In this document: piece by piece, positions 27,863 through 63,402 of the stretch | Layout: every line of letters starts with the position of its first letter | Numbering within the stretch: position 1 is the first letter of the stretch | From: Theocolax elegans | Taxonomy: Eukaryota > Arthropoda > Insecta > Hymenoptera > Cerocephalidae | Length of the DNA: 64,000 bases | Direction: 5' to 3' | NCBI GenBank assembly: GCA_026168455.1 | Contig: CM047431.1 | Location: 62,206,910 to 62,270,909 of the forward strand | The notes under the pieces: generated by a model | What the model was told of the DNA's origin: nothing | The model's database searches: none | Seen by the model: the letters and a program-made list of their open reading frames with translations, nothing else | Made by a program: the position numbers and the translations under genes

Positions 27863-27868
27863 CAGAAA
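27863..27868. repeat. 6-bp target-site duplication CAGAAA (left)
   Basis: It directly abuts the first base of the left arm. The identical hexamer in the same orientation abuts the last base of the right arm at 42689-42694. Chance agreement at both edges is about one in 4,000. Confidence 0.7.
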
Positions 27869-27939
27869 AGTAGATAGGCAAGGGGGCTTCTGGACCCCCC
27901 CACCACTCCACCATCCCATATAAATACACGGTCCCCTCC

Positions 27940-28640
27940 AAATTAATTAACAGGTGTGCATACGCCAGGTAAAATTCTAAGAATTTCATTTTTCCAAGAA
28001 TTACGATTATCAATTGCATCGTGCTCAACGTGAATGAGACATGCATAGATGACGAGTATAGTTCGATGCGACTAAGGATCAAGTTACACACCTTTGCATT
28101 CGAAAGTGCAGTAAAATTATCAGCTTATTACTTAACAAGTGTGCGAGTCAAATTTCTCCGAAAATCTTTTCCAAGAATTAGATCTTTTTTAATTAATAAA
28201 ATTGTTTAATTTATTTTAAGATATAAAATGCATGCACAAATACATAGTTGTACTTTTCGAGACAATTTTATAATAATTATGTCGATTAACTTTAAACTAA
28301 ATTACAAATAAATTAACAAGTTTGCATGGGTCAAGTAAAATTTCCCCGAAAATTATTTCCGAGTATTAGGCACAACTGTTCAAGTTAATGTCACAATTGA
28401 TGAGAAAGTCATACTTTTTACTGTCGTTTAGTCTAAACATTAATTTCCAAGAATTAAATTGCTTAATTAATAAAATCGTTTAAATCATTCGTTTTAAGAA
28501 ATGAAATGCATGTGCAAATATATATTGTACTTTTCGAGCCAATTTCTAAACAAATAAATATTTACTTATTGTTCAATACTAATTATGTCAATTAAATTTA
28601 AAGTAGATTACATATATTTTATATAACATGCATAAGTATA
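27940..28640. repeat. subterminal repeats of the giant element (left)
   Basis: Diverged direct repeats of roughly 300 bp share TTAACAAG(T)(T/G)TGC, AAATTT(C)TCCGAAAAT, TTTCCAAGAATTA, TTAATTAATAAAAT(T/C)GTTTAA and TTGTACTTTTCGAG. Blocks start near 27950, 28125 and 28315, with a further partial at 28440. Subterminal repeats near transposon ends often bind transposase or replication proteins. That role is inference here. Confidence 0.6.
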
Positions 28641-28689
28641 GGTGAAAAGGATTCTTAATAAACTAGAGTAAAATAAATTTATTTCACAT

Positions 28690-29010
28690 TTATTTTATTG
28701 TTTGAGTACATGTGTTACAATCTTTCTTTAACGGTGGTATCGCATTTACACTACAATGTTCACGACATCTTAAACATTTTAAAATTTCTGGATCACTTTT
28801 CAATTTTTTAGGTAATTTATTCCATGCCTGTTCGATACTGTTTGCTCCAAAAGTTGTCAGGAAACTTGTAGGTAATTGTGCAATATCGATCGAATCCATG
28901 AATGACAGATGTTCAGTTTTAAAAAATATTTTTAACGATCTTTCAATTGATGGAATATTGTCATGATAAAATTTTTTCAACAATAGGACGTTTCTGTGTT
29001 GTCTGTCAGT
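28690..29010 (-). CDS. terminal-exon-like ORF of unknown function (left copy)
   Basis: On the minus strand the frame is open from just after a TAG (29011-29013) to the TAA at 28690-28692, about 106 codons with no ATG near the start, so it is most likely a 3' exon. It begins TDRQHRNVLLLKKF and contains a C-terminal cysteine cluster (CLRCREHC, then CNTC) that could bind zinc. The stop is followed at once by AATAAA-type polyadenylation signals. Codon and residue use looks coding, unlike the surrounding DNA. I do not recognise the family. The FLYWCH exons at 35202-35682 lie upstream on the same strand, so both could belong to one gene, but intermediate exons were not found. Confidence 0.4.
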   Translation of the reverse strand, partial: TDRQHRNVLLLKKFYHDNIPSIERSLKIFFKTEHLSFMDSIDIAQLPTSFLTTFGANSIEQAWNKLPKKLKSDPEILKCLRCREHCSVNAIPPLKKDCNTCTQTIK

Positions 29011-29214
29011 CTAACCCTCAACGTCGACTTGGAATGTCGTGATGCGACGACTTGAAGAAATTCACCTTGGACGTTGGATCTTTTTGCAAAACATATGTAT
29101 AAATTTTTTTCAGGTATAAATAAGGTGATATTAAATAAATATTAATTCGTTTTTTTTACAAGAAACTTTAAATTATTAAAATGTCTAAAGAAATTTTATA
29201 AAGTGTAGGTAAAT

Positions 29215-29460
29215 GTAACCTACATTTGTACCACACTTTCAAGAACTTTCCCCATATTTTTCTCAACATAAGTTTAATTTATAATAACTTTGTATAATGT
29301 TTGGCGTAAGTTTATCACATACTTTTCCAAACTTGTCCCACATTTAAATGTGTGAGTTGTCAAGTTTGGGAAAGTCTCATTGCCCAAGTTGCGCCAACTT
29401 TATACAAACATAAACTTGGGCCAAGTTTGGCACAAACTTTCACATTTTTACGCGGGTAAT
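29215..29460. repeat. CAAACTTG-rich non-coding repeat (left copy)
   Basis: Variants of CCAAACTTGTCCCACA, CAAGTTTGGGAAAG, CCCAAGTTGCG and GGCCAAGTTTGGC alternate in both orientations and can pair with one another. There is no open frame. It may be a small foldback element nested in the arm. The mirror copy is at 41097-41342. Confidence 0.5.
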
Positions 29461-30139
29461 CGATAAGATTGATAATGTAAATATACTCTCTATATTAATG
29501 ATAATAATTGTCTTTCACCCTTTATTATTGATTTCAAAACTAAAAGGAATATTTTTTAATTTCTTGTACTTAAAGTAAGTATTTAAATAAAGAAACCCAT
29601 TTCCCAACTTCAAGGAATTGTAATAACATTTCCAAATCATCCGCCATCAACATGAAAGGAATATTACACACAAAATCAAGTTTTGGGCAAGACCTAATCA
29701 ACAATTAGCACAAGCAACCTTTAATAGAAGGTTTTTATTAAGATGTTGAACCAACGATCTTGTACCTCCTCATTTAAAAAACCAAAGTAAGCTGCAAAAG
29801 GACTTCATTTTCCATATTAATTTTAGTTAGAACAAATTATTTATATAAGTTCCACATTGAATTAAAAGTGTAAATAATTTCTTATTAAAATTGAAGATGT
29901 AATTTGGAATTTTCCAAAAGATAAGAATTTAATTTATGACTTTTTAACTTTGAAGAAATAAAGTTTTGACGCTTACATTGGGAATATAATGTATTACACA
30001 AAAGAAAATTTGATTTATATTATTGTTATTGATATTGATTCGTTAGGCTACAATTTTAATATTCATTTAAATTTATAAATCTCAAATATTACATATGTTA
30101 TTAAAAACGTTGAAGTGTCACTGCAAAATCTGCATATGC

Positions 30140-31150
30140 ATGTTGACGTTGAAAGTGAAATTAGAGACGAAATTACAAGTAACTTATATAGTGTAAACAA
30201 CAAAAATAAACATATAAAAATTCAAGACAAACTTTTAACTAAACAATTAAAGAAAAACAAATAATTTTTTAAAAATCATTCAGGAGTAATTTTTTCCAAA
30301 GGCTGATAAGGGTAAAGTATTGGTTATGTTTAAAAAAATCTAATTATATTCAAGATATGGATAAACTATTATTAGACATATATCGCATGTGAAAATAAAA
30401 ATCCATTAAAAAAATTACAAGAAAACGCATAAAATTTTTAAAACTTTGTATACAATAATGAATTAAAATATAAATTAGTATAACGGACGCTTTATTAGCA
30501 AAATGCTATGGTCTACCAAAACTTTACAAACTTACTTTATTTGTTCGACTTATTATTTCTATTTATACCAGTCAATATCAATCATAACTATATATTCTTT
30601 AGCTAAGCACATTTATGAACATTGAAAGTTAGGTGTGATGTTACCAAAATCACATAGCAATAGTTTTGAATTGAAATCCAAATGAAATAAAATTAATATT
30701 TTTGAAAATTACATATATTTTCACTTAATGTTAATTCATTATTTACAAATGCTGCTCGTAATTTAATATTAAATAGTTTAAAAAGATGCGTACAAGATAT
30801 ACAAAACAATTGAAAAATACCGGTTAACGAAAAACAAAAATAAACAAAATTGCTTTTTCACCACGTTCGCACATTATTTTCGGATATCGTAATGGATAAC
30901 TTGGAAAAATAATGTTTAAATAAACTTAAATAGGAATTTAATTGTATACCTCTTTTTTGTCACAGATATGTAGATGACATAATTTCATGTGTAAAAAAGA
31001 CCATATTAAATTAATTGTTACCACATTCAACGATTTACGACCAAAATCTAAAATTTACATATAAAATTGAAGAAGTACGATGGTACAATTAATCTTTTAA
31101 TAAATTGGTATTAAAACCTAACGTTTTCATTAAAAAATGGTTTTCTTAAA
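30140..31150 (+). pseudogene. decayed Penelope-like reverse transcriptase (left arm)
   Basis: In order on the plus strand I read ADKGKVLVMF (from 30302), AKCYGLPKLYK (from 30498) with VRLIIS shortly after, NSFEL (near 30664), NVNSLFTNAA (near 30731) and CHRYVDDI (30961-30981). These match the order of Penelope-like RT blocks: the ADKG block, the GLPKIHK block with LRPI(V/I)S, the SLFTN block and the YVDD catalytic box. The blocks sit in different frames with many stops and frameshifts, so the copy is dead. No GIY-YIG endonuclease domain could be traced downstream. It is nested inside the giant element. Confidence 0.75.
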
Positions 31151-34131
31151 TTAAGAATCCCACCTGGACTAGAAGAAATAAAAAAATAATTCTTTTCATT
31201 TTTAAATTTATTGTATATTACTTACATTAAAAATGAATATTCTAATGCGTTAGTATACATATTTTGTTTACTACAATGACACGCAGCTTTTTCAAACTCC
31301 CACCGCGAAAAATTATACAATTAGTTTTTCTCATCGGCGATCTCCAAAGTTTTATATCTTTTTTCTTTATTTTTCGTTTTTTACACCATTGATATACCTT
31401 ATAAGAATTGATCATCACTTTTATAAATTCTCATTAAATTTTGGTGATCGCCGATTCAAATGAGGGTTTGAAACAACTTTATACAAACGTGTAAATCTCT
31501 TAAAGATAGTCCTTTCATAAAATCGAACATTACGCAAATGTTCTTTTATTTTGTATAAGAAATACCTTATAGTTTCCTTTAATCGGAAATAAATTTTAAC
31601 TATAAAAATGAATAAAAAATATCTTTAAAATTGCATATGCTTATCACGAGATCTTGCGAAAGTATCGCAAGCTAAATGCCATAATTCAACATAATATTTT
31701 TTTACATTTGAGACGGTTGTAGTCAATCGCATTTATTACTTATGTATCCAAATATTGTTCAGTACCGGATAGATCACATAATTTTTCTGTTTATCAAAAT
31801 GGTATAAACATTATTTTCAAGTTCATCGATGCACCGAGACAATTAAATACTGATATAGTATTGTAACTATCTTAAATAGTTAAAGTTAAGATGTAAAATT
31901 GAAATGTTATTGTAACCAGTTTATACGATTCTAATTTATAGTACTCACTTAAAGTATTGAAAATACTTAAAAGTTAAGAACCTTATGTAAAAAAATTATG
32001 TAGATATATAATTTGTTGCTAATTTTATAAATTCAAATACGAGTTAAGGAAAGGTATGCAAATTTTTTGTATCTACTTATGCAAACGCATATAATTAATA
32101 CGATCTATCCGTTACTAAACTAGAATGCCACAAAATAATCGCAAAGATTGAGCACATATACTTAACCGTCGAAAGATCGTTTAATGAATTTGTAAGAATA
32201 TAATGCGCTGATATGGGTATGTGCGCGACCCGTTAATCGTATATATGGGAAAAGCGAATTTCATAAGGTGTCAAGTCACCGTGATCGCTCATGCTTTGCT
32301 CTATTTGACAGAGAACGAATCGAAGTCAGTACCCTGCATCGTCCACAATTACGAATCTCTACATTCGAGGTATATATCTTAAACAGTGCATTGAGACGAT
32401 TATTCATAATTTTGGCCAAATTATAATTGATACGTATATACATGCATCAAATTTTGTATTTTACGTTTCAAGTGAATAACAGTTATAATTGGATTTATGC
32501 GTGAGATGGTGCGTTAATTAAAATATTTTTATTACTTAATCTTGTTGCAAGTGTAGCGATCGAATTAATTAATTCTATAATTCCGATTAATCGTCATTCG
32601 CACCATTGTCTTCCTCGAACAGTCGTACTGGGTATATAGACAGATAGATTGATCGTTTTTTTATTAATATTAAAAGTCTAATTCACTTAAAAACTCTCGA
32701 TGCGATACAAATTTTAAATAAGACGAGCAAAAGAGCAGTTGAAAATACATCCGAAACGGGCCTATTGTGGAACGGGGACGAAATACCGAAAGTAAATAGC
32801 TATAACACAGCTTATAAACGATTAATTTCTTTACGTACTAACCGACTCGTTTATTATTTGTATATAGGAAAACAATTATTTTGCTTCAATTGTATAATTG
32901 TTAAAACAAAAATAATTTTACAAATTGTACACTGAGAAAAAAATTTTTTTGATTAAAAAAAAGTTTCATTAATTCAAAGAAATGCATTTTATTTTGAAAT
33001 ATTTAATTGAACCAAGGAAATATATGTTTAAGTAGAAGGAATATTTTTATACTTCAAAGAAATGTTTCTTTTGAGGATAATTGTCAAATCTTATATTCTT
33101 CCAAAATAATATTTGATTGTTTCAACACAATCTTCTTTAAATTTACAATCGAAAAATTGTGGTGTGTAAAACTATTTTTTCTATCGAAAGAAACACTCAA
33201 TAATACAATAATATATGTTTTAAAAATTAAAAAACGATATATTAATTGAAAAGATAATAATCTTCGTTGAAGGAAGCATTTCTTTAATCATATTGACTTA
33301 TCATTGTGAAAATTAAAATTTTCTGTACATAGATGTAAACTTTTTTTAATATAATGAAATATTTCTTAGACTAGAAATTTTTTTTCAGTTTTAAGATTTT
33401 AGAATTATATTGAAAATTGAAAAACCTTGGCATATTTAAATATTTTTTTAAATTAAAATATTCAGCTTCCTGCTACACAAATATTTCTATATTCCAAATA
33501 AACAGTTGTGTGATTCAAATGAATATGTTTTGACCCAAAAGTTTATTTAGTCAAATCAATAGCTAAACTTATCCATTTAAAGAAATATTGTTATAATTTA
33601 ATAAAATATAATGTCACATGAAACATTATTTAAGTTGCTTAAAGATCAAATTTTGATGACTTTAAAAAATATATGTGTGAAACAAACAATATGTTTTTTA
33701 GACCAATAAAATGTAGTTACAACTTAATTATATGCAATATATAATAAAAGATATATTAATTTTTTAAATACAATATTTTATTGAATTTGTTAAACATGTC
33801 ATCAATGTTAAGAAATATAATTTTTATTACAAGAATTACTTTCTATGCTGCAAAAAATATTTGACCGATTGCCCGCAATGACATAATTTCTTTAATTCAA
33901 TCTACTTTTTTTTGTTTTTAAGAAATTTTTTGGGACGACGACAAAACGCCTACTGATAAAACGCCTAATACCAATGTTCAGTTGATAGATTATAATAAGA
34001 ATAAGAAACACTGGTAAACGAACCACCTGCAAAATATTTTTTAAGTGTAAATTAAAATACTGTTTTGATTAAGAACTCAATAACGAATAACTTTATTAGG
34101 TAAACGCTAAAAATTCAAAAAAGGATTACAA
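31151..34131. other. AT-rich inner part of left arm
   Basis: Mostly AT-rich DNA with no recognisable gene. At 32936 a CACTGAGAAAAAAATTTTTT motif begins a stretch with repeated AAAGAAAT/ATTTCTTT words up to about 33900, which may be a small terminal-inverted-repeat element. At 33935-33975 lies GGGACGACGACAAAACGCC with a second AAAACGCCTA 16 bp on. The mirror region is 36426-39406. Confidence 0.5.
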
Positions 34132-34332
34132 TTTCAAGGGAGTGCCGTACTCAATTAAAAAGTCAAATTTCGCGCCACAAAATAGCAGACAAAAAATTAA
34201 CTAATTTACTTATAACAATTAATAAAAACAAACTTACGCAAAACCGGGAGTTAGTACCCTCCGTTATGTAATTTTCTGGTAATTACAAAGTTACACGTTA
34301 TTATAACAATATGTCGACAAGGACCTTGAAAA

Positions 34333-34348
34333 ATGCAATTTTCTTATA
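34333..34348. repeat. SINE target-site duplication (left)
   Basis: ATGCAATTTTCTTATA, identical to 34795-34810. The pre-insertion site is preserved at 34975-34990. Confidence 0.9.
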
Positions 34349-34794
34349 AAAATTTGGTAGTTTCCACGTACACCTTTTTACAGGTTTTTACGTATCCCCT
34401 ACACCTTTATTATTCCATTTCATTCCATTTCCAATTTTTACCCCCTCTTTACCCCACCTTCTCGCATTCGCCCGGGGTTATGCCCGTGGAGAGAGGGAAA
34501 ACCTGTGGCCAAACCCGTTGGGATAAATGCCATTTAGGAAAACCTCCTCCGAGAAGGGCGGTGTATTCGAGAACAATTCTGTTTGGGTGGCAAGGTCACA
34601 TTGCGTAGACTTTAACACCGAAACCGAATGCCTCACACCTCCCGCTCACGTTGAGGCATGTGAAAAAACACCTAACCGATCATTTAAGCTAAGCCCGAGA
34701 ACGGTCACCCATCCAAGTGCCAACCGCGCTCGGTGCTGCTTAACTTTCATGACCGGCCGAGGTGCGTTCTCGCCACTCCGCCACCGTGTCGGTT
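34349..34794 (-). mobile_element. 5S rRNA-derived SINE (SINE3-type)
   Basis: On the minus strand the element opens with a head resembling 5S rRNA: GTTAAGCAGCACCGAGCGCG, then GTTGGCACTTGGATGGGTGACCG (about 34745-34703). This is the region holding the internal polymerase III control elements (box A, intermediate element and box C) of 5S genes. A body of about 340 bp of unknown origin follows. ATGCAATTTTCTTATA lies on both sides (34333-34348 and 34795-34810) and occurs once, uninterrupted, at 34975-34990. The 16-bp duplication is typical of LINE-mobilised SINEs. It is not a functional 5S gene, because the first and last parts do not match. Confidence 0.85.
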
Positions 34795-34810
34795 ATGCAA
34801 TTTTCTTATA
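34795..34810. repeat. SINE target-site duplication (right)
   Basis: Second copy of ATGCAATTTTCTTATA, directly upstream of the 5S-like head on the minus strand. Confidence 0.9.
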
Positions 34811-34898
34811 TTTTTTATGGTTTTGTTGGCGACATATTGTTATAATAACTTGCAACTTTGTAAAATAATAGATAATTACATAACGGAGGGAGTTAGTA

Positions 34899-35070
34899 CC
34901 CTCCGTTATGTAATTTTCTGGTAATTACAAAGTTACACGTTATTATAACAATATGTCGACAAGGACCTTGAAAAATGCAATTTTCTTATATTTTTTATGG
35001 TTTTGTTGGCGACATATTGTTATAATAACTTGCAACTTTGTAAAATAATAGATAATTACATAACGGAGGG
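34899..35070. mobile_element. 172-bp MITE-like palindrome, copy 2, uninterrupted
   Basis: It is identical to copy 1 apart from the SINE and its duplication, and is joined to copy 1 by AGTTAGTA, giving a 180-bp tandem period. It documents the empty SINE site. Confidence 0.85.
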
Positions 35071-35201
35071 CAATAAACTCCTGGTTTCCCGTAAATTTGT
35101 TTTTATTAATTGTTATAAGTAAATTAGTTAATTTTTTGTCTGCTATTTTGTGGCGCGAAATTTGAATTTTTAATTGAGTACGGCACTCCCTTGAAACTTA
35201 C

Positions 35202-35682
35202 TTGCATTTGATTGCATCATATACACTTTTCACATCCACCTTTCCAGGAGCTGTAACAGCTTCTCGTAGCCGCATTTTAAATTTATTGTCCTCTTCTAGT
35301 GTGAGTATAGGAGAATGAGTATGACGAGATTTTCCTTCCTCATACTTCCCATTCCGTATAATGCATGTACCAGAACATTTATCATCTTTTTTGTCTGACT
35401 TTATACATATGAGGTATCTAAAGAATTTTATAAACTAACTTAAATCCGTATAGTATATTAACCTTTTAGTTAAAAAGATTTTTCACAACATAAACATTAA
35501 ACATATTAAAGAGCTAATTGAAGAAATTTAACTTCTTATTTTTCAACAATATTGAAATTGTAAACATGGCAAATAATAAATTATACATACAAAATATCTC
35601 CAACTTTTCTATTCAATTTATACTGATAGCCATTAAAAGCATATCCCCTTGAAAAAGAACTTGTATTTTGATTTTTCTCCAT
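35202..35682 (-). CDS. FLYWCH zinc-finger protein, first two exons (partial)
   Basis: Exon 1 runs 35682-35591 (ATG at 35682-35680, 30 codons plus 2 bases) and reads through RGYAFNGYQYKLNRK. Exon 2 runs 35417-35202 (216 bases) and contains KCSGTC and RHTHSP. Together they give the FLYWCH zinc-finger pattern: a glycine-tyrosine strand, two cysteines and an HxH pair. Both splice junctions are good: donor GTATGT at 35590, acceptor CTTTAG before 35417, donor GTAAGT at 35201. The phase-2 joins match. FLYWCH domains bind DNA or protein and in insects often precede a MULE-type transposase. The rest of the protein is not found: the nested palindrome begins right after the last donor. It may be a truncated host gene or a gene of the giant element. 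Confidence 0.7.
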
Positions 35683-35689
35683 TATTTAC

Positions 35690-36422
35690 ATTTATTTAAT
35701 AAACTAATTTCAATAAATTATAAATACTTTCACGAATTGCTATACGTTTACAGCAACTTATATATGCATAAATATATTTTCTTTTTTTCGTTTTTTTTAT
35801 ATAATTACTACTACAAATTGAACAACAGAGTGTGTGTTTTTTGCGCGCACGCGTTGGCAACGAAAACAAAACAAGACTTATTATCACATACGTACAACTT
35901 GTAGTAGTATATATATACACATCAAATATTTAATTCTAATTAAATGTAATTTTTTATTTAATCTATAACATATACATTGCATACTAAATTATTATTTATT
36001 TGTAAAAAAAACCATAATTATACTACTATATAAGACAGTTGATATAACTAGAATTATAAAAAAAATTAAAAACAATTGTAATAGATATTTGTGTAATATA
36101 CTTATACTGTTTATAAAAACAATTTAATACGTGTCAATATATTTAACACCCAATAACAGACGAGCATTAAAACTTTCTTACAGTGATATATTCTACATCT
36201 AAAAGAAAAGGTCCGCTTTTAATCTATGCATATACAATTTAATTTTTTGAAATTGACTCACTTTATCAAAATAAATGTCTTAAAATAATATAAAGCAATA
36301 CAATTTATTAATATGTAATTATAATATTTAGATAATCCCATTGTTTAAATCTACTGTTTATGAGAGAATTTAAAAAAACATTTTACTCGAGTTACTACGG
36401 ATTAATTACTTTTTTAATTTTT
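35690..36422. other. spacer remainder upstream of the FLYWCH exons
   Basis: AT-rich, except for GCGCGCACGCGTTGGCAACG at about 35841-35860 on the plus strand. Lying about 160-180 bp upstream of the FLYWCH start codon, it could belong to the promoter or 5' leader of that gene. Nothing else was recognised. Confidence 0.4.
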
Positions 36423-39406
36423 AAATTGTAATCCTTTTTTGAATTTTTAGCGTTTACCTAATAAAGTTATTCGTTATTGAGTTCTTAATCAAAACAGTAT
36501 TTTAATTTACACTTAAAAAATATTTTGCAGGTGGTTCGTTTACCAGTGTTTCTTATTCTTATTATAATCTATCAACTGAACATTGGTATTAGGCGTTTTA
36601 TCAGTAGGCGTTTTGTCGTCGTCCCAAAAAATTTCTTAAAAACAAAAAAAAGTAGATTGAATTAAAGAAATTATGTCATTGCGGGCAATCGGTCAAATAT
36701 TTTTTGCAGCATAGAAAGTAATTCTTGTAATAAAAATTATATTTCTTAACATTGATGACATGTTTAACAAATTCAATAAAATATTGTATTTAAAAAATTA
36801 ATATATCTTTTATTATATATTGCATATAATTAAGTTGTAACTACATTTTATTGGTCTAAAAAACATATTGTTTGTTTCACACATATATTTTTTAAAGTCA
36901 TCAAAATTTGATCTTTAAGCAACTTAAATAATGTTTCATGTGACATTATATTTTATTAAATTATAACAATATTTCTTTAAATGGATAAGTTTAGCTATTG
37001 ATTTGACTAAATAAACTTTTGGGTCAAAACATATTCATTTGAATCACACAACTGTTTATTTGGAATATAGAAATATTTGTGTAGCAGGAAGCTGAATATT
37101 TTAATTTAAAAAAATATTTAAATATGCCAAGGTTTTTCAATTTTCAATATAATTCTAAAATCTTAAAACTGAAAAAAAATTTCTAGTCTAAGAAATATTT
37201 CATTATATTAAAAAAAGTTTACATCTATGTACAGAAAATTTTAATTTTCACAATGATAAGTCAATATGATTAAAGAAATGCTTCCTTCAACGAAGATTAT
37301 TATCTTTTCAATTAATATATCGTTTTTTAATTTTTAAAACATATATTATTGTATTATTGAGTGTTTCTTTCGATAGAAAAAATAGTTTTACACACCACAA
37401 TTTTTCGATTGTAAATTTAAAGAAGATTGTGTTGAAACAATCAAATATTATTTTGGAAGAATATAAGATTTGACAATTATCCTCAAAAGAAACATTTCTT
37501 TGAAGTATAAAAATATTCCTTCTACTTAAACATATATTTCCTTGGTTCAATTAAATATTTCAAAATAAAATGCATTTCTTTGAATTAATGAAACTTTTTT
37601 TTAATCAAAAAAATTTTTTTCTCAGTGTACAATTTGTAAAATTATTTTTGTTTTAACAATTATACAATTGAAGCAAAATAATTGTTTTCCTATATACAAA
37701 TAATAAACGAGTCGGTTAGTACGTAAAGAAATTAATCGTTTATAAGCTGTGTTATAGCTATTTACTTTCGGTATTTCGTCCCCGTTCCACAATAGGCCCG
37801 TTTCGGATGTATTTTCAACTGCTCTTTTGCTCGTCTTATTTAAAATTTGTATCGCATCGAGAGTTTTTAAGTGAATTAGACTTTTAATATTAATAAAAAA
37901 ACGATCAATCTATCTGTCTATATACCCAGTACGACTGTTCGAGGAAGACAATGGTGCGAATGACGATTAATCGGAATTATAGAATTAATTAATTCGATCG
38001 CTACACTTGCAACAAGATTAAGTAATAAAAATATTTTAATTAACGCACCATCTCACGCATAAATCCAATTATAACTGTTATTCACTTGAAACGTAAAATA
38101 CAAAATTTGATGCATGTATATACGTATCAATTATAATTTGGCCAAAATTATGAATAATCGTCTCAATGCACTGTTTAAGATATATACCTCGAATGTAGAG
38201 ATTCGTAATTGTGGACGATGCAGGGTACTGACTTCGATTCGTTCTCTGTCAAATAGAGCAAAGCATGAGCGATCACGGTGACTTGACACCTTATGAAATT
38301 CGCTTTTCCCATATATACGATTAACGGGTCGCGCACATACCCATATCAGCGCATTATATTCTTACAAATTCATTAAACGATCTTTCGACGGTTAAGTATA
38401 TGTGCTCAATCTTTGCGATTATTTTGTGGCATTCTAGTTTAGTAACGGATAGATCGTATTAATTATATGCGTTTGCATAAGTAGATACAAAAAATTTGCA
38501 TACCTTTCCTTAACTCGTATTTGAATTTATAAAATTAGCAACAAATTATATATCTACATAATTTTTTTACATAAGGTTCTTAACTTTTAAGTATTTTCAA
38601 TACTTTAAGTGAGTACTATAAATTAGAATCGTATAAACTGGTTACAATAACATTTCAATTTTACATCTTAACTTTAACTATTTAAGATAGTTACAATACT
38701 ATATCAGTATTTAATTGTCTCGGTGCATCGATGAACTTGAAAATAATGTTTATACCATTTTGATAAACAGAAAAATTATGTGATCTATCCGGTACTGAAC
38801 AATATTTGGATACATAAGTAATAAATGCGATTGACTACAACCGTCTCAAATGTAAAAAAATATTATGTTGAATTATGGCATTTAGCTTGCGATACTTTCG
38901 CAAGATCTCGTGATAAGCATATGCAATTTTAAAGATATTTTTTATTCATTTTTATAGTTAAAATTTATTTCCGATTAAAGGAAACTATAAGGTATTTCTT
39001 ATACAAAATAAAAGAACATTTGCGTAATGTTCGATTTTATGAAAGGACTATCTTTAAGAGATTTACACGTTTGTATAAAGTTGTTTCAAACCCTCATTTG
39101 AATCGGCGATCACCAAAATTTAATGAGAATTTATAAAAGTGATGATCAATTCTTATAAGGTATATCAATGGTGTAAAAAACGAAAAATAAAGAAAAAAGA
39201 TATAAAACTTTGGAGATCGCCGATGAGAAAAACTAATTGTATAATTTTTCGCGGTGGGAGTTTGAAAAAGCTGCGTGTCATTGTAGTAAACAAAATATGT
39301 ATACTAACGCATTAGAATATTCATTTTTAATGTAAGTAATATACAATAAATTTAAAAATGAAAAGAATTATTTTTTTATTTCTTCTAGTCCAGGTGGGAT
39401 TCTTAA

Positions 39407-40417
39407 TTTAAGAAAACCATTTTTTAATGAAAACGTTAGGTTTTAATACCAATTTATTAAAAGATTAATTGTACCATCGTACTTCTTCAATTTTATATGT
39501 AAATTTTAGATTTTGGTCGTAAATCGTTGAATGTGGTAACAATTAATTTAATATGGTCTTTTTTACACATGAAATTATGTCATCTACATATCTGTGACAA
39601 AAAAGAGGTATACAATTAAATTCCTATTTAAGTTTATTTAAACATTATTTTTCCAAGTTATCCATTACGATATCCGAAAATAATGTGCGAACGTGGTGAA
39701 AAAGCAATTTTGTTTATTTTTGTTTTTCGTTAACCGGTATTTTTCAATTGTTTTGTATATCTTGTACGCATCTTTTTAAACTATTTAATATTAAATTACG
39801 AGCAGCATTTGTAAATAATGAATTAACATTAAGTGAAAATATATGTAATTTTCAAAAATATTAATTTTATTTCATTTGGATTTCAATTCAAAACTATTGC
39901 TATGTGATTTTGGTAACATCACACCTAACTTTCAATGTTCATAAATGTGCTTAGCTAAAGAATATATAGTTATGATTGATATTGACTGGTATAAATAGAA
40001 ATAATAAGTCGAACAAATAAAGTAAGTTTGTAAAGTTTTGGTAGACCATAGCATTTTGCTAATAAAGCGTCCGTTATACTAATTTATATTTTAATTCATT
40101 ATTGTATACAAAGTTTTAAAAATTTTATGCGTTTTCTTGTAATTTTTTTAATGGATTTTTATTTTCACATGCGATATATGTCTAATAATAGTTTATCCAT
40201 ATCTTGAATATAATTAGATTTTTTTAAACATAACCAATACTTTACCCTTATCAGCCTTTGGAAAAAATTACTCCTGAATGATTTTTAAAAAATTATTTGT
40301 TTTTCTTTAATTGTTTAGTTAAAAGTTTGTCTTGAATTTTTATATGTTTATTTTTGTTGTTTACACTATATAAGTTACTTGTAATTTCGTCTCTAATTTC
40401 ACTTTCAACGTCAACAT
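39407..40417 (-). pseudogene. decayed Penelope-like reverse transcriptase (right arm)
   Basis: Mirror copy of the relic at 30140-31150, with the YVDD codons at 39579-39590 on the minus strand. It shares the same frameshifts and stops. The decay therefore happened before the two arms became identical, or has been copied between arms since. Confidence 0.75.
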
Positions 40418-41096
40418 GCATATGCAGATTTTGCAGTGACACTTCAACGTTTTTAATAACATATGTAATATTTGAGATTTATAAATTTAAATGAATATTA
40501 AAATTGTAGCCTAACGAATCAATATCAATAACAATAATATAAATCAAATTTTCTTTTGTGTAATACATTATATTCCCAATGTAAGCGTCAAAACTTTATT
40601 TCTTCAAAGTTAAAAAGTCATAAATTAAATTCTTATCTTTTGGAAAATTCCAAATTACATCTTCAATTTTAATAAGAAATTATTTACACTTTTAATTCAA
40701 TGTGGAACTTATATAAATAATTTGTTCTAACTAAAATTAATATGGAAAATGAAGTCCTTTTGCAGCTTACTTTGGTTTTTTAAATGAGGAGGTACAAGAT
40801 CGTTGGTTCAACATCTTAATAAAAACCTTCTATTAAAGGTTGCTTGTGCTAATTGTTGATTAGGTCTTGCCCAAAACTTGATTTTGTGTGTAATATTCCT
40901 TTCATGTTGATGGCGGATGATTTGGAAATGTTATTACAATTCCTTGAAGTTGGGAAATGGGTTTCTTTATTTAAATACTTACTTTAAGTACAAGAAATTA
41001 AAAAATATTCCTTTTAGTTTTGAAATCAATAATAAAGGGTGAAAGACAATTATTATCATTAATATAGAGAGTATATTTACATTATCAATCTTATCG

Positions 41097-41342
41097 ATTA
41101 CCCGCGTAAAAATGTGAAAGTTTGTGCCAAACTTGGCCCAAGTTTATGTTTGTATAAAGTTGGCGCAACTTGGGCAATGAGACTTTCCCAAACTTGACAA
41201 CTCACACATTTAAATGTGGGACAAGTTTGGAAAAGTATGTGATAAACTTACGCCAAACATTATACAAAGTTATTATAAATTAAACTTATGTTGAGAAAAA
41301 TATGGGGAAAGTTCTTGAAAGTGTGGTACAAATGTAGGTTAC
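41097..41342. repeat. CAAACTTG-rich non-coding repeat (right copy)
   Basis: Mirror of the repeat at 29215-29460 in the right arm. Confidence 0.5.
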
Positions 41343-41546
41343 ATTTACCTACACTTTATAAAATTTCTTTAGACATTTTAATAATTTAAAGTTTCTTGTA
41401 AAAAAAACGAATTAATATTTATTTAATATCACCTTATTTATACCTGAAAAAAATTTATACATATGTTTTGCAAAAAGATCCAACGTCCAAGGTGAATTTC
41501 TTCAAGTCGTCGCATCACGACATTCCAAGTCGACGTTGAGGGTTAG

Positions 41547-41867
41547 ACTGACAGACAACACAGAAACGTCCTATTGTTGAAAAAATTTTATCATGACAAT
41601 ATTCCATCAATTGAAAGATCGTTAAAAATATTTTTTAAAACTGAACATCTGTCATTCATGGATTCGATCGATATTGCACAATTACCTACAAGTTTCCTGA
41701 CAACTTTTGGAGCAAACAGTATCGAACAGGCATGGAATAAATTACCTAAAAAATTGAAAAGTGATCCAGAAATTTTAAAATGTTTAAGATGTCGTGAACA
41801 TTGTAGTGTAAATGCGATACCACCGTTAAAGAAAGATTGTAACACATGTACTCAAACAATAAAATAA
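41547..41867 (+). CDS. terminal-exon-like ORF of unknown function (right copy)
   Basis: Mirror copy of the ORF at 28690-29010 with an identical translation. Acceptor-like AG dinucleotides occur in ACTGACAG|AC at about 41554. The stop is followed by CAATAAAATAAATG. In this orientation no FLYWCH-like exon lies upstream, so this copy would lack the 5' part of the putative gene. No family was recognised. Confidence 0.4.
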   Translation, partial: TDRQHRNVLLLKKFYHDNIPSIERSLKIFFKTEHLSFMDSIDIAQLPTSFLTTFGANSIEQAWNKLPKKLKSDPEILKCLRCREHCSVNAIPPLKKDCNTCTQTIK

Positions 41868-41916
41868 ATGTGAAATAAATTTATTTTACTCTAGTTTATT
41901 AAGAATCCTTTTCACC

Positions 41917-42617
41917 TATACTTATGCATGTTATATAAAATATATGTAATCTACTTTAAATTTAATTGACATAATTAGTATTGAACAATAAGTAAATATT
42001 TATTTGTTTAGAAATTGGCTCGAAAAGTACAATATATATTTGCACATGCATTTCATTTCTTAAAACGAATGATTTAAACGATTTTATTAATTAAGCAATT
42101 TAATTCTTGGAAATTAATGTTTAGACTAAACGACAGTAAAAAGTATGACTTTCTCATCAATTGTGACATTAACTTGAACAGTTGTGCCTAATACTCGGAA
42201 ATAATTTTCGGGGAAATTTTACTTGACCCATGCAAACTTGTTAATTTATTTGTAATTTAGTTTAAAGTTAATCGACATAATTATTATAAAATTGTCTCGA
42301 AAAGTACAACTATGTATTTGTGCATGCATTTTATATCTTAAAATAAATTAAACAATTTTATTAATTAAAAAAGATCTAATTCTTGGAAAAGATTTTCGGA
42401 GAAATTTGACTCGCACACTTGTTAAGTAATAAGCTGATAATTTTACTGCACTTTCGAATGCAAAGGTGTGTAACTTGATCCTTAGTCGCATCGAACTATA
42501 CTCGTCATCTATGCATGTCTCATTCACGTTGAGCACGATGCAATTGATAATCGTAATTCTTGGAAAAATGAAATTCTTAGAATTTTACCTGGCGTATGCA
42601 CACCTGTTAATTAATTT
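41917..42617. repeat. subterminal repeats of the giant element (right)
   Basis: Exact mirror of the subterminal repeats at 27940-28640, placed just inside the right terminus. Confidence 0.6.
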
Positions 42618-42688
42618 GGAGGGGACCGTGTATTTATATGGGATGGTGGAGTGGTGGGGGGGTCCAGAAGCCCCCTTGCCTATCTACT

Positions 42689-42694
42689 CAGAAA
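42689..42694. repeat. 6-bp target-site duplication CAGAAA (right)
   Basis: Right partner of the hexamer at 27863-27868. The sequences outside the two hexamers are unrelated, as expected for an insertion. Confidence 0.7.
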
Positions 42695-45384: not shown

Positions 45385-48300
45385 AGGTAAAGTACCCAAT
45401 GGCGGGACAAAACTTAAATGTAAGGAAGTTCTCTATTGATTTACGCAAAAATAATGTCTGCGTAATAAGATTTTTTGTTTTAAAAAGATGCGCTACTTCA
45501 TAATAAAGACGACAAAACAAGAAATTTTATGAAAATGAAAATATTATTTAAGTAATTAGTAAAATAAAAATGACGTATGTTCTGCTAAAGTGGGACAATA
45601 AGATACTGTCGGGACGGTAAGTTGGGACACCATAGGACTGGAATGTGGGACAAGACATTGTAATACAATTTTTTATGTAATAAGATATGGAGATAAACAA
45701 ATCATAATTCAAAATGAAATAACATTATAATTTTATGTAAATTAAAGTAATACAATGTAATATAAACACTTTGCAATTAATACATGTACACAAAACATAA
45801 ATTATTAATACTGACTTGCACTGTATTTAAAATCTCTTATTATTAATATCACAAGTAATTTATCATTAATAATAAAATCTTTATTCACGCCATATTTTCT
45901 TTAAATTGAAGTTTAAATCTTAAATCTTCTTTTTCAATCTCAATTAGAAGTTTCTGCAATTCTTGAAATTGGTTTTGTAAATCAAGTTGTTCATTTGCGA
46001 ATTCTTTTTTTCTCGTTTCGTCCGATTCTTTTTTAAGGTTTTTTTTAAGAAGCTTTAATTTTTCATTGGTTTCTTTTTTTCGTTCATTTAATTGTTTTTT
46101 CCTCTCTTGATATTCTTTGCATCTTTGTGTTTCTTTCTCTTTGATTATTTTCCGTTTTTCCTGATCTTTCTTTTTTTGTAAAACTTCGTCGGTTTTTTCT
46201 TTTTTTATTTTCTGTTGAATATTTAAATGATCTATTATATCATCTAATAAAAAGCCAGTTGGGATTTTATTTTTACTTTTCTTTGATAAATCAGGATTAG
46301 GGTAAATGAACGCGTCTGCAAATGGATCTTTTTGAGTACCTAAAATAAATTTAATAAAAATAATAAAATAATTTTACACGTAATTAATTATGTAAACGTA
46401 TACTCGATTTTACCTTGATTAGAGTTATCTGAGGACAAATCTAGAGGAAAAACGTTAGCAGCGTCATCTAAAAAGAACATTCAATATGTAAAAAATATTA
46501 TACAATAATTGCAAAAACAAAGTACGTAGTAAACATCTAAAACCATTCAATTCAGCAATAGAGCACTTGATAATTGTTGCAGAGTTATTTTGAACTTCTT
46601 TAGAACTACTTTTAGAACAATTATTCAAATCCTTTTCAGAAGATATGCAGTTCAAAGCATTTAAGTCACCCTGACATTCATTCTTATTAGTTATAGAATA
46701 ACTTTGCAAAGAGTTAGCAATTTCACAGCTTTCATATTGTGGTTTTTCAATGAATCCTGCTTGTTCATTAATCAATTTGGTCCGAGAAATACATTGACTG
46801 TTAGTAGAAATATCTGCAAAAATATTAAATAATTTATTTGCAAATAAATATTTACAATACAATTATAAACAAAGTTTTTCAATATAACATTTGAAGTTAC
46901 CAATAAGTTGATTCTTGTCCTTTGTTGTATAATTAAGTGCAGTATTTGTACAATTTTCTTCTCTTGTCAAATCTGTAGACTCGAAGTTTGAATTAGTCAA
47001 GGAATTGAAACTGCTACTTCCACTGTCTAGATTAATTTGTTGACTAATAACTGTAAAAAATTTAAAAATAGAATATTAAAAATGTTATACGTACACAATA
47101 ATTATGTAGAATAAAGTATTAAAATTACCTTTTAAATCGACAGTAGGATTGATCTTGCCATCGGTTGTAGCACTTACATGTTTTATAGATGCAAGTTCTG
47201 ATGTACTCAGGTTATCGAGCATAACAATTTCATAACTATTCACTGTAAATGGATGTAAAAACACAAAATTAATTATTTTAAAGTTCATGAAAAACTAATA
47301 TATTAAATTTTACCTTCTGTAGTCATATCTGACATAATGTTTGATGGATCAGCAATGTCATTTTCATTGAAAACTATTAATATTTGTTCATCCGTACTTT
47401 CATTTGGCAGAATATTGCTTAGCGTAACATCAGTTTCAGTATCAAGATTATTCGAAGCATGTACTTCAGCAATAGTTTCACAAGATGATTGTAAATTATT
47501 ATTGACATTAGCCTCTGCGCTGTCTAAATTTTTACTGATTTGACCTATTCACGTATAAATAATAATTATATTAAAATACCATTTACAAAATCTAAGCGAT
47601 TACACTCACAACACAAGATAATCAAAAAATAAATACCACTCATTTTTCTTAATGCGCACCAAACTTCAAACAAAGATTCTTTATGAAGAATTTGTTGGTC
47701 ATGATCCTCTTTAGAAATTTTAATGGATTCTTCAAATTCTTTTATTAAATTTTTATCTAGAAAATTAGTTTCAAAATATTCTAAAAAATTTTTATTGTCT
47801 ACAACGTTACCATCTTCTTTTTCATTAGATTGTAGGGTTACTGCATTCTTCTTCTTTCTTTTTTTATCTAAGACATTATAATCAACTGCATCAGGGTTAA
47901 AAGGGTTTAACCCGCATTTTCTAAAGCCATTAATTACAATATTTTTTAAATCAATTTCTTGAAGGCTAATATTTAAGACAGTAGCAAACATGTCTTTCTT
48001 AAAGTTGATGACTTTATTTTCAATTCTCCATTGCAACAGCACATCTTTATACTTTGACTTTAGCGGGTGAAATAATGCCACATCTAATGGTTGCAACAAA
48101 TGTGTTGCATTGGGATATAAAGGCACTAGTTCTATGTTGTGTTCTTTACAAAACTTGCACAAAGGTAAAGATAAGTGACTGGAGTGTCCGTCTAGATATA
48201 ACACAACTGGAAAAACAATATCCTGTTGCTGCAACCACTTGAAGAAAACATTGCTTACAAAGCAATAGAAACTATCGCTGGTCATCCAACCACTTTCTGA

Positions 48301-49915
48301 CAGCCCAACTCCCCAACCTTTGGGAATTTTATTTAAAATATTCTTGTTTGGAAGTTTTTTACATTCAAATAAAATCATTGGTGGAGCCAATACACCTGAA
48401 GCACTGGCTGTTATCAAGACAGTTAAGCATTCTTTTTCACTACCACCAACAATGTTGTATACACTAGATCTTCCTTTCTGTGCTAAAACAGCATCGTTGT
48501 CAGGGCACAGCATAAAAGAGGATTCATCACAATTAAAAATTCGATCCGGACTGACATTCAACAGATTCTTTTCTTCCAAGTTATTCTTGACATTTTGGAA
48601 CCATTGGCGAAGATCAGATTCTTGCACAGACGCCCTAGTTGATGTTAAATTTTGAGCAACACGCAGACTTATGTCAGAGTGTCGTTGCATAAATCCTTTG
48701 TACCAGTGTTTACCTGGCCTGTTATTAACAAACGGATTATCTCTCTTCACTTCAATAATATATTTTTGAATGGAGTCGAGCAACTGATTTTTTCTAACCG
48801 GACAACCTTTATCAGCACAGTACTTGATCCAAGAAACAATATCTTCTTCTTCTTTCTTTGTTAGAACTGTTGGAGCCCCAAGTTTACAATCAAGTGTTGA
48901 AAAATTCTTATACTTATTAAAGAGCGTACTTTTTGGCACTCCGTAAACTTCAGCAATCTGTCTAAGTGTTTGCCCGTTTCCAATATCATTTAAAGCACTT
49001 TTTAGATTTTCTTGAGTGTAAGTTTTAACATTTTGCTTAGTTTTCTTTTTTATTGTTTTTTTTACACAATTTTTATCTTTCACTTTCTTGTTTCCTTTTG
49101 CATTCTTATTTTCTTTATTTGTAATGTTTTTCTTCAGCTTCATTTTATCTTATTTATAGTACTTAATCTGTAATAATAATAAGTTTTATAAAATTACTTT
49201 TATCATTCACTTTAAATATTAGTTTTTCAAAAAGAGGTTAGAATTGAAACATTTTTACTTACACATATAAATTTCTATTTATTACTCAGTAATAGTCAAA
49301 ACAAGTTCACATTTAGATTTTTTTTATTATTCACATTACAAAGTAATAATTTATCTTTATTAAAATAATTATTTGTCAGAGATCTGCTAACAACAACAAA
49401 CACTTCAATTATGCGGTCTCACTTTAGGGTCTGTCTCGCAACCGTGACGGTAAGTCTGGGACAAAACTCGAATCTTGTCCAACTTTAAGTTACCTAACAC
49501 AATGTGAGATGGTAAATTAGGACACGTATTTTATTATTTAAAATCATTATTAATTTATAAAATTGCTTTAAATTTTTGAAATTTAAATATATTTAAGTAT
49601 TTTAGATAAGTTAGATATGTTTATTTATATTACTAGCTTAAAATTTACAAAAATTAAATATGTACATGACTCGACCTGGAACGCAGTAAAATCACGTCAA
49701 AATGCAGTACTATATTTCACTTTAAAATTTCATAGTAAATTAATAATTTTTGATAAGATGTAACACAAAAAATTGAAACTTAATATTCAAAAATGTTATA
49801 TTTTAGTGAAAAACATTTGTGTTAACAAGTATTAATATAATTTAAAACGATTTTCGAAGTATGTCCCACTTTAAGGTCTGAAATTGCGCCTGTCCCACGA
49901 ATGGGTACTTTACCT
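45385..49915 (-). mobile_element. complete pogo-like DNA transposon, 4.53 kb
   Basis: The left end AGGTAAAGTACCCAATGGCG and the inverted right end AGGTAAAGTACCCATTCGTG match at 22 of 25 positions counting through GGGACA. TA flanks both ends (45383-45384 and 49916-49917), the signature of Tc1/mariner/pogo insertion. GGGACA/TGTCCC words recur just inside both ends (about 45590-45656 and 49430-49525, 49863, 49892) and probably serve as subterminal binding sites. One seven-exon transposase gene fills the interior. Both ends and the gene appear intact, so the copy may be young or active. Confidence 0.9.
45885..49143 (-). CDS. pogo/Tigger-like transposase, seven exons, 926 aa
   Basis: Exons by position: 49143-47637, 47544-47314, 47242-47129, 47050-46901, 46813-46544, 46467-46414, 46339-45885. 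Every intron is GT-AG and phase 1, and the joined frame has no internal stop (2,781 bases including TGA). Residues about 41-85 form a psq/CENP-B-type helix-turn-helix, and about 95-165 a Tc5-type DNA-binding domain. The DDE_1 nuclease follows, with D206 in NCDES, D318 in LDGHSSH and D354 in LQPLDVALF; 35 residues separate the last two, as in pogo elements. Exons 2-6 encode a Ser/Asn-rich linker, and exon 7 a Lys/Glu-rich coiled coil of about 130 residues. AATAAA overlaps the stop (45880-45885). The 420-residue C-terminal extension is unusually long. It cuts and pastes the element at TA sites in the nucleus. Confidence 0.88.
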
Positions 49916-60118: not shown

Positions 60119-60905
60119 ATATCAATTAATATTGGTAATTTTATTTTTTCAGTCAATTAACGATAAAAGATAAAATTCAGATACGTCAGTTAATCACTTG
60201 ACACCGATAATATAAGAAGATCCGTTTTCGAACTAAATAAATAATTAATTTATCAAACAAATTATGAATATTTAATACAAAAATTGTTAAGTAATTTTGT
60301 TATGATATCATAAACTATATATATCATTTAAAACTACAGGGTATACTGAAAAATACAAAATAAGTTTGATGCAAGTTGTATAAATATTATATAAGGAACA
60401 TAAGTAAAAAATTACGAAGTGTCTATTCGCACTAAATCTATACCATTAAGTGTCGCATAAAAAACGTGTCTATGTAAAATGTCAATCCCAAAGTGTAGTA
60501 ACAACCTCTAAGCTATACACAAGAGAATAGGGTGGTTGGTGTGGGAGGAAGGATGTTACATTTATTAATTTTACAATCAAGGTATACCGATGTCCCTGAT
60601 TATATATATTATATATTTTTTTGCTTAAACTCCATAAAGTTTCTGCAATAGAAAATACTGCAATAGAAAATCAACCTTCGGTACCAACATTCAAATTCCA
60701 ATAGTGAATACCAATATTGGTCCAACGTTGGGTACCAATATTGGTCAAACGTAGGGTACCAATATTGATTCAACGTTGGGTACCAACATTGGTCCAACGT
60801 TGGGTACCAACATTGGTCCAACGTTGGGTACCAACATTGATCCAACGTTGGGTACCAACATTGGTCCAACGTTGGGTACCAATATTGATTCAACATTGGG
60901 TACCA
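60115..60905. repeat. macro-repeat unit 2 with short minisatellite
   Basis: Copy of the unique block (60118-60690) followed by about eight 24-bp units (60700-60905). The array then breaks off into CCAAACCAACTATGGCAC and a hAT-like terminus. Confidence 0.9.

Positions 60906-61683: not shown

Positions 61684-63402
<1,719 letters not shown>

What the first reader, a model, noticed from the sequence alone, without database searches (positions are those of the whole stretch)
27863..42694. A 14.8-kb palindromic element with 6.27-kb indel-free arms and a 6-bp target duplication
Two inverted arms of 6,266 bp map onto each other without any length change, end in 5'-AGTAGATAGG, and are bracketed by CAGAAA on both sides. 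The size, 5'-AG ends and 6-bp duplication fit Polinton/Maverick elements, but no Polinton protein was recognised and the inverted repeats take up 85 percent of the element. It is either a non-autonomous giant relative or an undescribed foldback class.
Basis: partly seen in the sequence, partly recalled or inferred. Interest (0 to 1): 0.9.

Follow-up and report, generated by a model that had tools for sequence, protein, structure and literature searches.

The report
Palindromic Polinton carrying copied host DNA
A virus-like transposon in an animal genome, probably an insect's, seems to have picked up a stretch of host DNA, folded back on a natural hairpin and copied itself into a near-perfect 15-kb palindrome, which then reached several chromosomes, apparently with the proteins of its intact relatives.

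Summary
In detail: arms 27869-34137 and 36420-42688 differ at 1 of 6,269 positions, begin AGTAGATAGG and are flanked by CAGAAA.

The same genome holds three full Polintons with the same tips (integrase, ATPase, capsid and pPolB-related ORFs in the copy scanned); they match arm positions 1-1131 at 99.4-99.6%. Five loci carry the palindrome; four have both ends, three of these with different perfect 6-bp duplications. Its only helper-protein remnant is the last 102 codons of one ORF, once per arm.

Inside is host DNA: one stem of a 1.06-kb foldback repeat, then sequence 99.6-99.7% identical to a locus at C3:60.43 Mb. That locus contains a natural 404-bp inverted repeat, and the palindrome turns round at its base. 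Arms of one copy differ less than arms of different copies (10/22,980 against 331/136,582).

Best reading: a non-autonomous Polinton made by Polinton-host template switching and snap-back copying at a host hairpin, then spread in trans by Polinton machinery. It resembles adenovirus 'symmetric recombinants' (recalled). The anatomy is shown; the replication steps are inferred.

The parts
27863..27868 (+). left target duplication CAGAAA
42689..42694 (+). right target duplication CAGAAA
27869..34137 (+). left arm, 6,269 bp
36420..42688 (-). right arm, 6,269 bp, one mismatch with the left arm
27869..28999 (+). Polinton end (arm positions 1-1131), 99.4-99.6% identical to three full Polintons
41558..42688 (-). 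Polinton end, mirror copy
28693..28998 (-). last 102 codons of a 252-aa Polinton ORF, 99% aa identity
41559..41864 (+). the same ORF remnant, mirror copy
29000..29457 (+). one stem of a ~1.06-kb foldback repeat; the Polinton is joined at the loop edge
41100..41557 (-). the same stem, mirror copy
29457..34137 (+). host DNA collinear with C3:60428914-60433311 (99.6-99.7%), except 30602-31048, which replaces 161 bp there
36420..41100 (-). the same host DNA, mirror copy
34132..35196 (.). central hairpin derived from the 404-bp inverted repeat of the C3 locus (L029 7150-7553), here with an internal duplication and an insert; the turn point is the stretch at 34147-34161
34349..34794 (.). ~450-bp insert inside the hairpin, absent from the C3 locus, C1, C714 and C6
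35197..36419 (-). host DNA (L029 7140-5913) left on one side only; its left counterpart was deleted, as in C714

Best explanation
A non-autonomous, palindromic Polinton. SHOWN: both tips are the same end of a Polinton family present in the genome; inside lie one stem of a foldback repeat and then host DNA matching C3:60.43 Mb; the second arm starts at the base of a natural 404-bp inverted repeat of that host locus; the palindrome sits at several sites with different 6-bp duplications; arms of one copy are more alike than arms of different copies. INFERRED: during protein-primed, strand-displacing replication of a Polinton, a nascent strand left its template 1,131 nt from the tip, switched to the loop edge of a foldback repeat in host DNA, copied about 6 kb of host sequence up to the 404-bp inverted repeat, snapped back there within a shared 15-nt stretch (GTACTCAATTAAAAA) at the stem base and was copied back to the tip. 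The product is a linear molecule of about Polinton size with a Polinton tip at each end, which the polymerase, terminal protein and integrase of full Polintons could replicate and insert in trans. The displaced single strand of such a molecule can fold into one long duplex, in which one arm corrects or templates the other; this would keep the arms alike. Later deletions near the centre made the copies asymmetric, which should stabilise them.
For: Shared tips and 1,131 bp with full Polintons that encode integrase, A32-type ATPase and double-jelly-roll capsid and a polymerase ORF 92% identical over 699 aa to one matching DNA_pol_B_2. Different perfect 6-bp duplications in 3 of 4 two-ended palindromes. 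The window and C714 share one asymmetric centre junction at different targets, so the palindrome itself moved. C3 locus in single orientation, with the hairpin, and the turn at its base in all four copies that keep the hairpin. Inner arms of C1 and C6 continue symmetrically to the hairpin. Both edges of the captured DNA coincide with hairpin-forming repeats. Within-copy arm differences 10/22,980 against 331/136,582 between copies; the true pairing is the closest of 105. Derived changes present in both arms: 941 and 4177 (window and C714), 1233 and 5569 (window), 936 and 1108 (C1), 1069, 3659 and a 176-bp deletion (C4). Nine non-palindromic relatives have terminal repeats of only about 150-320 bp.
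Against: No replication intermediate or read was seen; protein priming, switching and trans-mobilisation are inferred. The C4 palindrome has no 6-bp duplication (TTAATT/TTATGT), and the C6 copy is left-truncated with about 1.24 kb of target duplicated. The short terminal repeats of full Polintons differ by 2-12%, so copying between ends is not perfect in the helpers. The shared asymmetric centre of the window and C714 shows that the whole molecule was not rebuilt from one arm in that lineage; their own-arm advantage is small (1 and 5 differences within, 3-6 between). C714 arms differ near the tip (19, 25, 26, 44). The C3 locus lacks the foldback repeat present in the arm, so the exact donor allele was not seen. 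If short reads were used for polishing, arms could look too alike.
Confidence: 0.6

Rival explanations
1. Chromosomal origin: a truncated Polinton end lay beside the host segment in a chromosome. A break near the 404-bp inverted repeat was healed by intrastrand annealing and hairpin copying, giving an inverted duplication with Polinton ends facing outward, which Polinton machinery only later mobilised. Arm identity is kept by gene conversion within the palindrome.
For: Hairpin-primed inverted duplication after a break is known from other systems (recalled). The turn lies at the base of an inverted repeat. Patchy exchange between the hairpin stems differs among copies, as conversion would give. 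The C6 copy shows repair-like joining.
Against: No single-armed precursor or Polinton end at C3 appears in the searches (one search scored only 40 of 837 candidates). The Polinton-host join lies at a loop edge, which suggests single-stranded DNA.
Confidence: 0.25
2. Each palindrome arose independently by snap-back of a one-armed Polinton-host molecule.
For: Arms within a copy are most alike; the hairpin could prime repeatedly.
Against: The turn lies in the same 15-nt stretch in all four copies with a hairpin, and the window and C714 share one asymmetric centre.
Confidence: 0.1
3. Assembly artefact: palindromic chimeric reads or polishing that made arms alike.
For: Near-perfect arms; no reads available.
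Against: Five loci with different flanks, three different perfect duplications, different central deletions and a 176-bp deletion in both arms of one copy only.
Confidence: 0.03
4. A separate foldback class with machinery of its own.
For: No intact gene in the element: only short ORFs and one ORF remnant.
Against: Tips, 1,131 bp and duplication length are those of Polintons of the same genome.
Confidence: 0.02

Closest known systems
Polinton/Maverick (adintovirus-type) elements
   Same: Tips AGTAGATAGG, 6-bp target duplication and terminal 1,131 bp are shared with three full Polintons here. Named capsid relatives include 'Megastigmus wasp adintovirus' hexon. 6-bp duplications and AG-type end motifs are described for vertebrate Mavericks (PMC8097293, passages).
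   Different: No coding capacity of its own; terminal inverted repeats of 6-7.5 kb instead of about 0.15-0.32 kb in nine relatives here; the same end on both sides; most of its length is host DNA.
Adenovirus-host symmetric recombinants (SYREC, adenovirus 12) and gene-less adenovirus genomes arising through inverted repeats (both recalled; not found in the library)
   Same: One viral end on both tips, cellular DNA in a large palindrome, helper-dependent, in a protein-primed linear DNA virus (recalled).
   Different: Those are virus populations in cell culture; this is a germ-line transposon family with target duplications and an identified host donor and turn point.
Snapback genomes of adeno-associated virus (PMC8235507, abstract start in a listing)
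   Same: Double-stranded genome in snap-back form derived from one end of a parent virus.
   Different: Hairpin-primed, not protein-primed, replication (recalled); no host DNA is mentioned in the text seen.
Pack-type DNA transposons (Pack-MULEs and animal relatives; PMC8277862, abstract start in a listing)
   Same: Non-autonomous elements with captured host sequence.
   Different: Ordinary short inverted ends in that class (recalled); here capture and palindrome formation go together.
Mu killer of maize (recalled)
   Same: Inverted duplication of a transposon end.
   Different: A single-locus silencer, not a mobile family; no RNA data were available here.

Membership tests
Polinton/Maverick, as a non-autonomous member | 6-bp target duplication | tested here: met
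   Perfect in the window, C1 and C714; absent in C4; not assessable in left-truncated C6.
Polinton/Maverick, as a non-autonomous member | tips beginning 5'-AG, shared with autonomous copies | tested here: met
   AGTAGATAGG in the palindromes and in all three full Polintons.
Polinton/Maverick, as a non-autonomous member | sequence identity with an autonomous Polinton in the genome | tested here: met
   1,131 bp at 99.4-99.6%; helpers encode integrase, ATPase, capsid and a pPolB-related ORF. No protease was identified in the helper ORFs scanned.
Polinton/Maverick, autonomous | own pPolB, integrase, ATPase and capsid genes | tested here: not met
   Ten helper ORFs against the element: only the last 102 codons of one ORF at E<=1e-3.
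Polinton/Maverick, as a non-autonomous member | mobilisation by Polinton proteins | not testable with these tools
   Inferred from tips and duplications only.
Symmetric recombinant (SYREC-like) genome | same viral end on both tips, host DNA between, head-to-head | tested here: met
Symmetric recombinant (SYREC-like) genome | helper-dependent replication as free linear DNA | not testable with these tools
   No reads or particles available.
Foldback transposon class of its own | tips unrelated to a known superfamily | tested here: not met
   Tips are Polinton tips.
Foldback transposon class of its own | arms built of short tandem repeats (recalled for Drosophila FB elements) | tested here: not met
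   Tandem-repeat search found one 32-bp array per arm.

The most novel reading that the evidence does not exclude
Polintons give birth to new mobile elements in the way recalled for adenovirus symmetric recombinants: a nascent strand that left its template takes up host DNA, snaps back at a host hairpin, and the resulting palindrome becomes a germ-line transposon whose arms are copied from or corrected against each other during a single-stranded stage. Host inverted repeats then act as ready-made 'second ends' that turn half an element into a whole one. Transcribed palindromes might also yield double-stranded RNA against the helper Polintons (no evidence yet).
Probability: 0.5. Interest if true: 0.85.

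Novelty: new variant of a known kind. Interest (0 to 1): 0.75.

Why it matters
How Polintons replicate is inferred mainly from their genes. Here the product of what looks like a rare replication accident, its probable host donor, both junctions and several daughter copies lie in one genome, so the steps can be read and tested. It shows how an element with one usable end can be made whole by a host hairpin, how Polintons can carry host DNA in two copies, and it offers a natural case of 6-kb arms that stay alike while copies diverge.

Tried and rejected
Separate foldback class: not supported, because of the shared Polinton end. Arm interior as unrecognised Polinton genes: rejected, it matches host DNA, and ten helper ORFs match only the end of one ORF. 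Central unit 34132-35196 as a repeat that landed in the spacer: replaced, since the C3 locus itself has this hairpin; only the ~450-bp insert and an internal duplication are extra. Insert 34349-34794 as 5S-derived (by eye): no Rfam match. FLYWCH-type exon at the C3 locus (by eye): no Pfam match at or above cut-off; a joined reading found one unlabelled 116-aa protein that resembles the part beyond the hairpin. Insertion of Polintons at centres of inverted repeats: flanks are inverted around two of ten elements tested (full Polintons on C6 and C2), so not pursued. The count of 14 two-armed private substitutions in C4 is inflated: 11 of them, at 367-653, come with the 176-bp deletion between two diverged repeats and are treated as one event. 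differ slightly in their arm-difference counts because they used different block sizes and coverage rules.

Literature: searches for a palindromic or foldback Polinton were and for adenovirus parallels; they cover open-licence papers, mostly the top of each listing. None listed describes such an element; absence from print is not shown. Passages only were seen of PMC9147251, PMC13035915, PMC6431247, PMC2836005 and PMC8097293; other papers as listings.
Full report
OBSERVATION. The inverted arms lie at 27869-34137 and 36420-42688. Both ends read AGTAGATAGG inward and CAGAAA flanks both. The element is 14,820 bp long.

COPIES. The window lies in a 658-Mb eukaryotic assembly of 1,277 contigs. Among the 120 listed of 2,779 relatives of the capsid protein, those that name an organism are wasps and sawflies (that these are Hymenoptera is recalled), so the host is probably a hymenopteran (inference). 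A search with the first 801 bp of the arm gave 44 matches, a lower bound. The palindromic family is: the window, C1:7615470-7630621, C714:4256-18436, C4:7141009-7153207, and a C6 copy ending at 54368121 with one complete arm. C1:11740383 holds only arm positions 1-1261.

POLINTON ENDS. Three elements of 16.0-16.5 kb (C4:86759753-86776251, C6:20739198-20755699, C2:71740761-71756809; lengths) share arm positions 1-1131 at 99.4-99.6% at one end and 1-258 at 94.6-97.3% at the other. ORFs of the C6 copy match integrase (rve; a weak chromo domain), poxvirus A32-type ATPase, phospholipase A2 and double-jelly-roll capsid. Its 1,273-aa ORF had no polymerase match in Pfam but is 92% identical over 699 aa to an ORF of a related element that matches DNA_pol_B_2 at 2.8e-27. 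No protease was identified. Target duplications are CTCGCT, ATAGTA and GGTGCT; two more distant relatives have TTCAAG and GAGATA. Of four further relatives whose ends were read, two show a perfect duplication (GTAACT, ATTGTT), one does not, and in one the right tip was not found by exact pattern. In the nine non-palindromic relatives examined the terminal repeat is about 150-320 bp at 88-98% identity (for four of them only 2.5 kb per end was compared). In the palindrome only the last 102 codons of the helpers' 252-aa ORF remain, once per arm.

MOBILITY. Target duplications of the palindromes differ: CAGAAA (window), AATTTC (C1), TATACA (C714); C4 has none. The C6 copy has a canonical right end, but its left arm stops in mid-sequence and about 1.24 kb of target is duplicated. 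The window and C714 share one asymmetric centre junction yet sit at different targets, so the palindrome moves as a palindrome.

HOST DNA INSIDE. Just past arm position 1131 comes one stem of a foldback repeat of about 1.06 kb (stems ~455 bp, loop ~150 bp in the three copies fetched), of which many two-stemmed copies appear in the genome search. The join to the Polinton lies at the loop edge. From 29457 inward the arm is collinear with C3:60428914-60433311 at 99.6-99.7%, apart from one replaced stretch (161 bp there, 447 bp in the arm). The C3 locus has this sequence in one orientation; part of it is also tandemly duplicated there, and no Polinton end was found there. It lacks the foldback repeat, so the exact donor allele was not seen. 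A search with 35200-36425 (9 of 9 candidates scored) hit the palindromes (two places each in C1 and C6, one each in the window, C714 and C4, plus a 58-bp piece in C1), C3, and one 82% stretch on C7. The corresponding search with 29000-34137 scored only 40 of 837 candidates because of the repeats in it.

THE TURN. Bases 7150-7553 of the C3 stretch (L029) are an inverted repeat, 83% alike with itself. In C1, C714, C6 and the window the palindrome follows the C3 sequence through this hairpin and, within the shared stretch GTACTCAATTAAAAA at the stem base, changes to the reverse complement of what precedes the hairpin. In C1 the inner arms match over 897 bp (99.9%) and 79 bp (100%) on the two sides of the hairpin, with about 270 bp missing from one side; the C6 stub matches over about 0.74 kb. 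The window and C714 have lost the left partner of 35197-36419 by a deletion with a 3-bp shared stretch at the join (by eye); C4 has lost most of the hairpin. The first palindrome thus had arms of about 7.5 kb up to the hairpin (inference), and copies now differ by central deletions.

ARM IDENTITY. Substitutions between the two arms of one copy: 1 of 6,269 (window), 4 of 5,969 (C1), 5 of 5,965 (C714), 0 of 4,777 (C4), in all 10 of 22,980; between arms of different copies, 24 pairs, 331 of 136,582. Of 105 ways to pair the eight arms the true pairing is closest. The C6 arm was left out of these counts because it has no full partner. Changes derived by comparison with full Polintons, the foldback repeat or C3 that occur in both arms: 1233 and 5569 (window), 941 and 4177 (window and C714), 936 and 1108 (C1, single-base deletions), 1069, 3659 and the 176-bp deletion (C4). 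Against: C714 arms differ at 19, 25, 26, 44 and by an indel at 607; C1 and C4 arms differ at a few sites and indels; for the window against C714 the own-arm advantage is slight. Near the tip the palindromes carry two versions (positions 19-27) that also occur in full Polintons, and the two arms of C714 differ in this, which suggests exchange with helpers (inference).

MECHANISM. Shown: composition, host match, turn, mobility, arm likeness. Inferred: protein-primed replication, template switching, snap-back, trans-mobilisation. Two points favour a replication accident over a chromosomal inversion: both edges of the captured DNA coincide with hairpin-forming repeats, and no chromosomal precursor was seen. 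The two-ended palindromes measure 12.2-15.2 kb against 16.0-16.5 kb for the full Polintons, which would suit packaging, but these are too few for a test.

RELATION TO KNOWN THINGS. It meets the tests made here for a non-autonomous Polinton and fails the test for an autonomous one. Its plan is that of adenovirus symmetric recombinants, which I recall and did not find in the library. No palindromic Polinton appeared in the listings, which cover open-licence papers only.

VERDICT. The finding is real, its anatomy is explained, and its likely origin is unusual: a new variant of a known kind, interest 0.75.

Noticed in passing
window 34349-34794: About 450 bp inserted in the central hairpin, absent from the C3 locus, C1, C714 and C6; 5S-like by eye but no Rfam match.
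   Followed up: partly
L019/L020/L033 (C6:54358245-54369378): Left-truncated palindrome with about 1.24 kb of target duplicated instead of 6 bp, as if one end was joined by integrase and the other by repair.
   Followed up: partly
L017 501-1761 (C1:11740383-11741643): One-ended 1,261-bp fragment of the Polinton-foldback-repeat chimera with no second end or duplication seen; a 1,447-aa Copia-type ORF lies in the neighbouring stretch L018.
   Followed up: partly
L011/L012 and L013/L014 flanks: The sequences flanking two of the three full Polintons are inverted copies of each other (150 bp at 97%, 187 bp at 85%).
   Followed up: partly
window 47566-49149 (-): 527-aa open frame with DDE_1, HTH_Tnp_Tc5 and HTH_psq domains, a pogo-type transposase by recalled domain make-up.
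   Followed up: no
window 58133-60160 and 62015-62929: Long minisatellite open on both strands, and a TA-rich microsatellite.
   Followed up: no
C7:41.24, C4:79.85, C7:27.70 and C2:71.76 Mb (L034-L041): Larger Polinton-like elements (about 22-32 kb between ends) with the same tips and short terminal repeats; their interiors were not read.
   Followed up: partly
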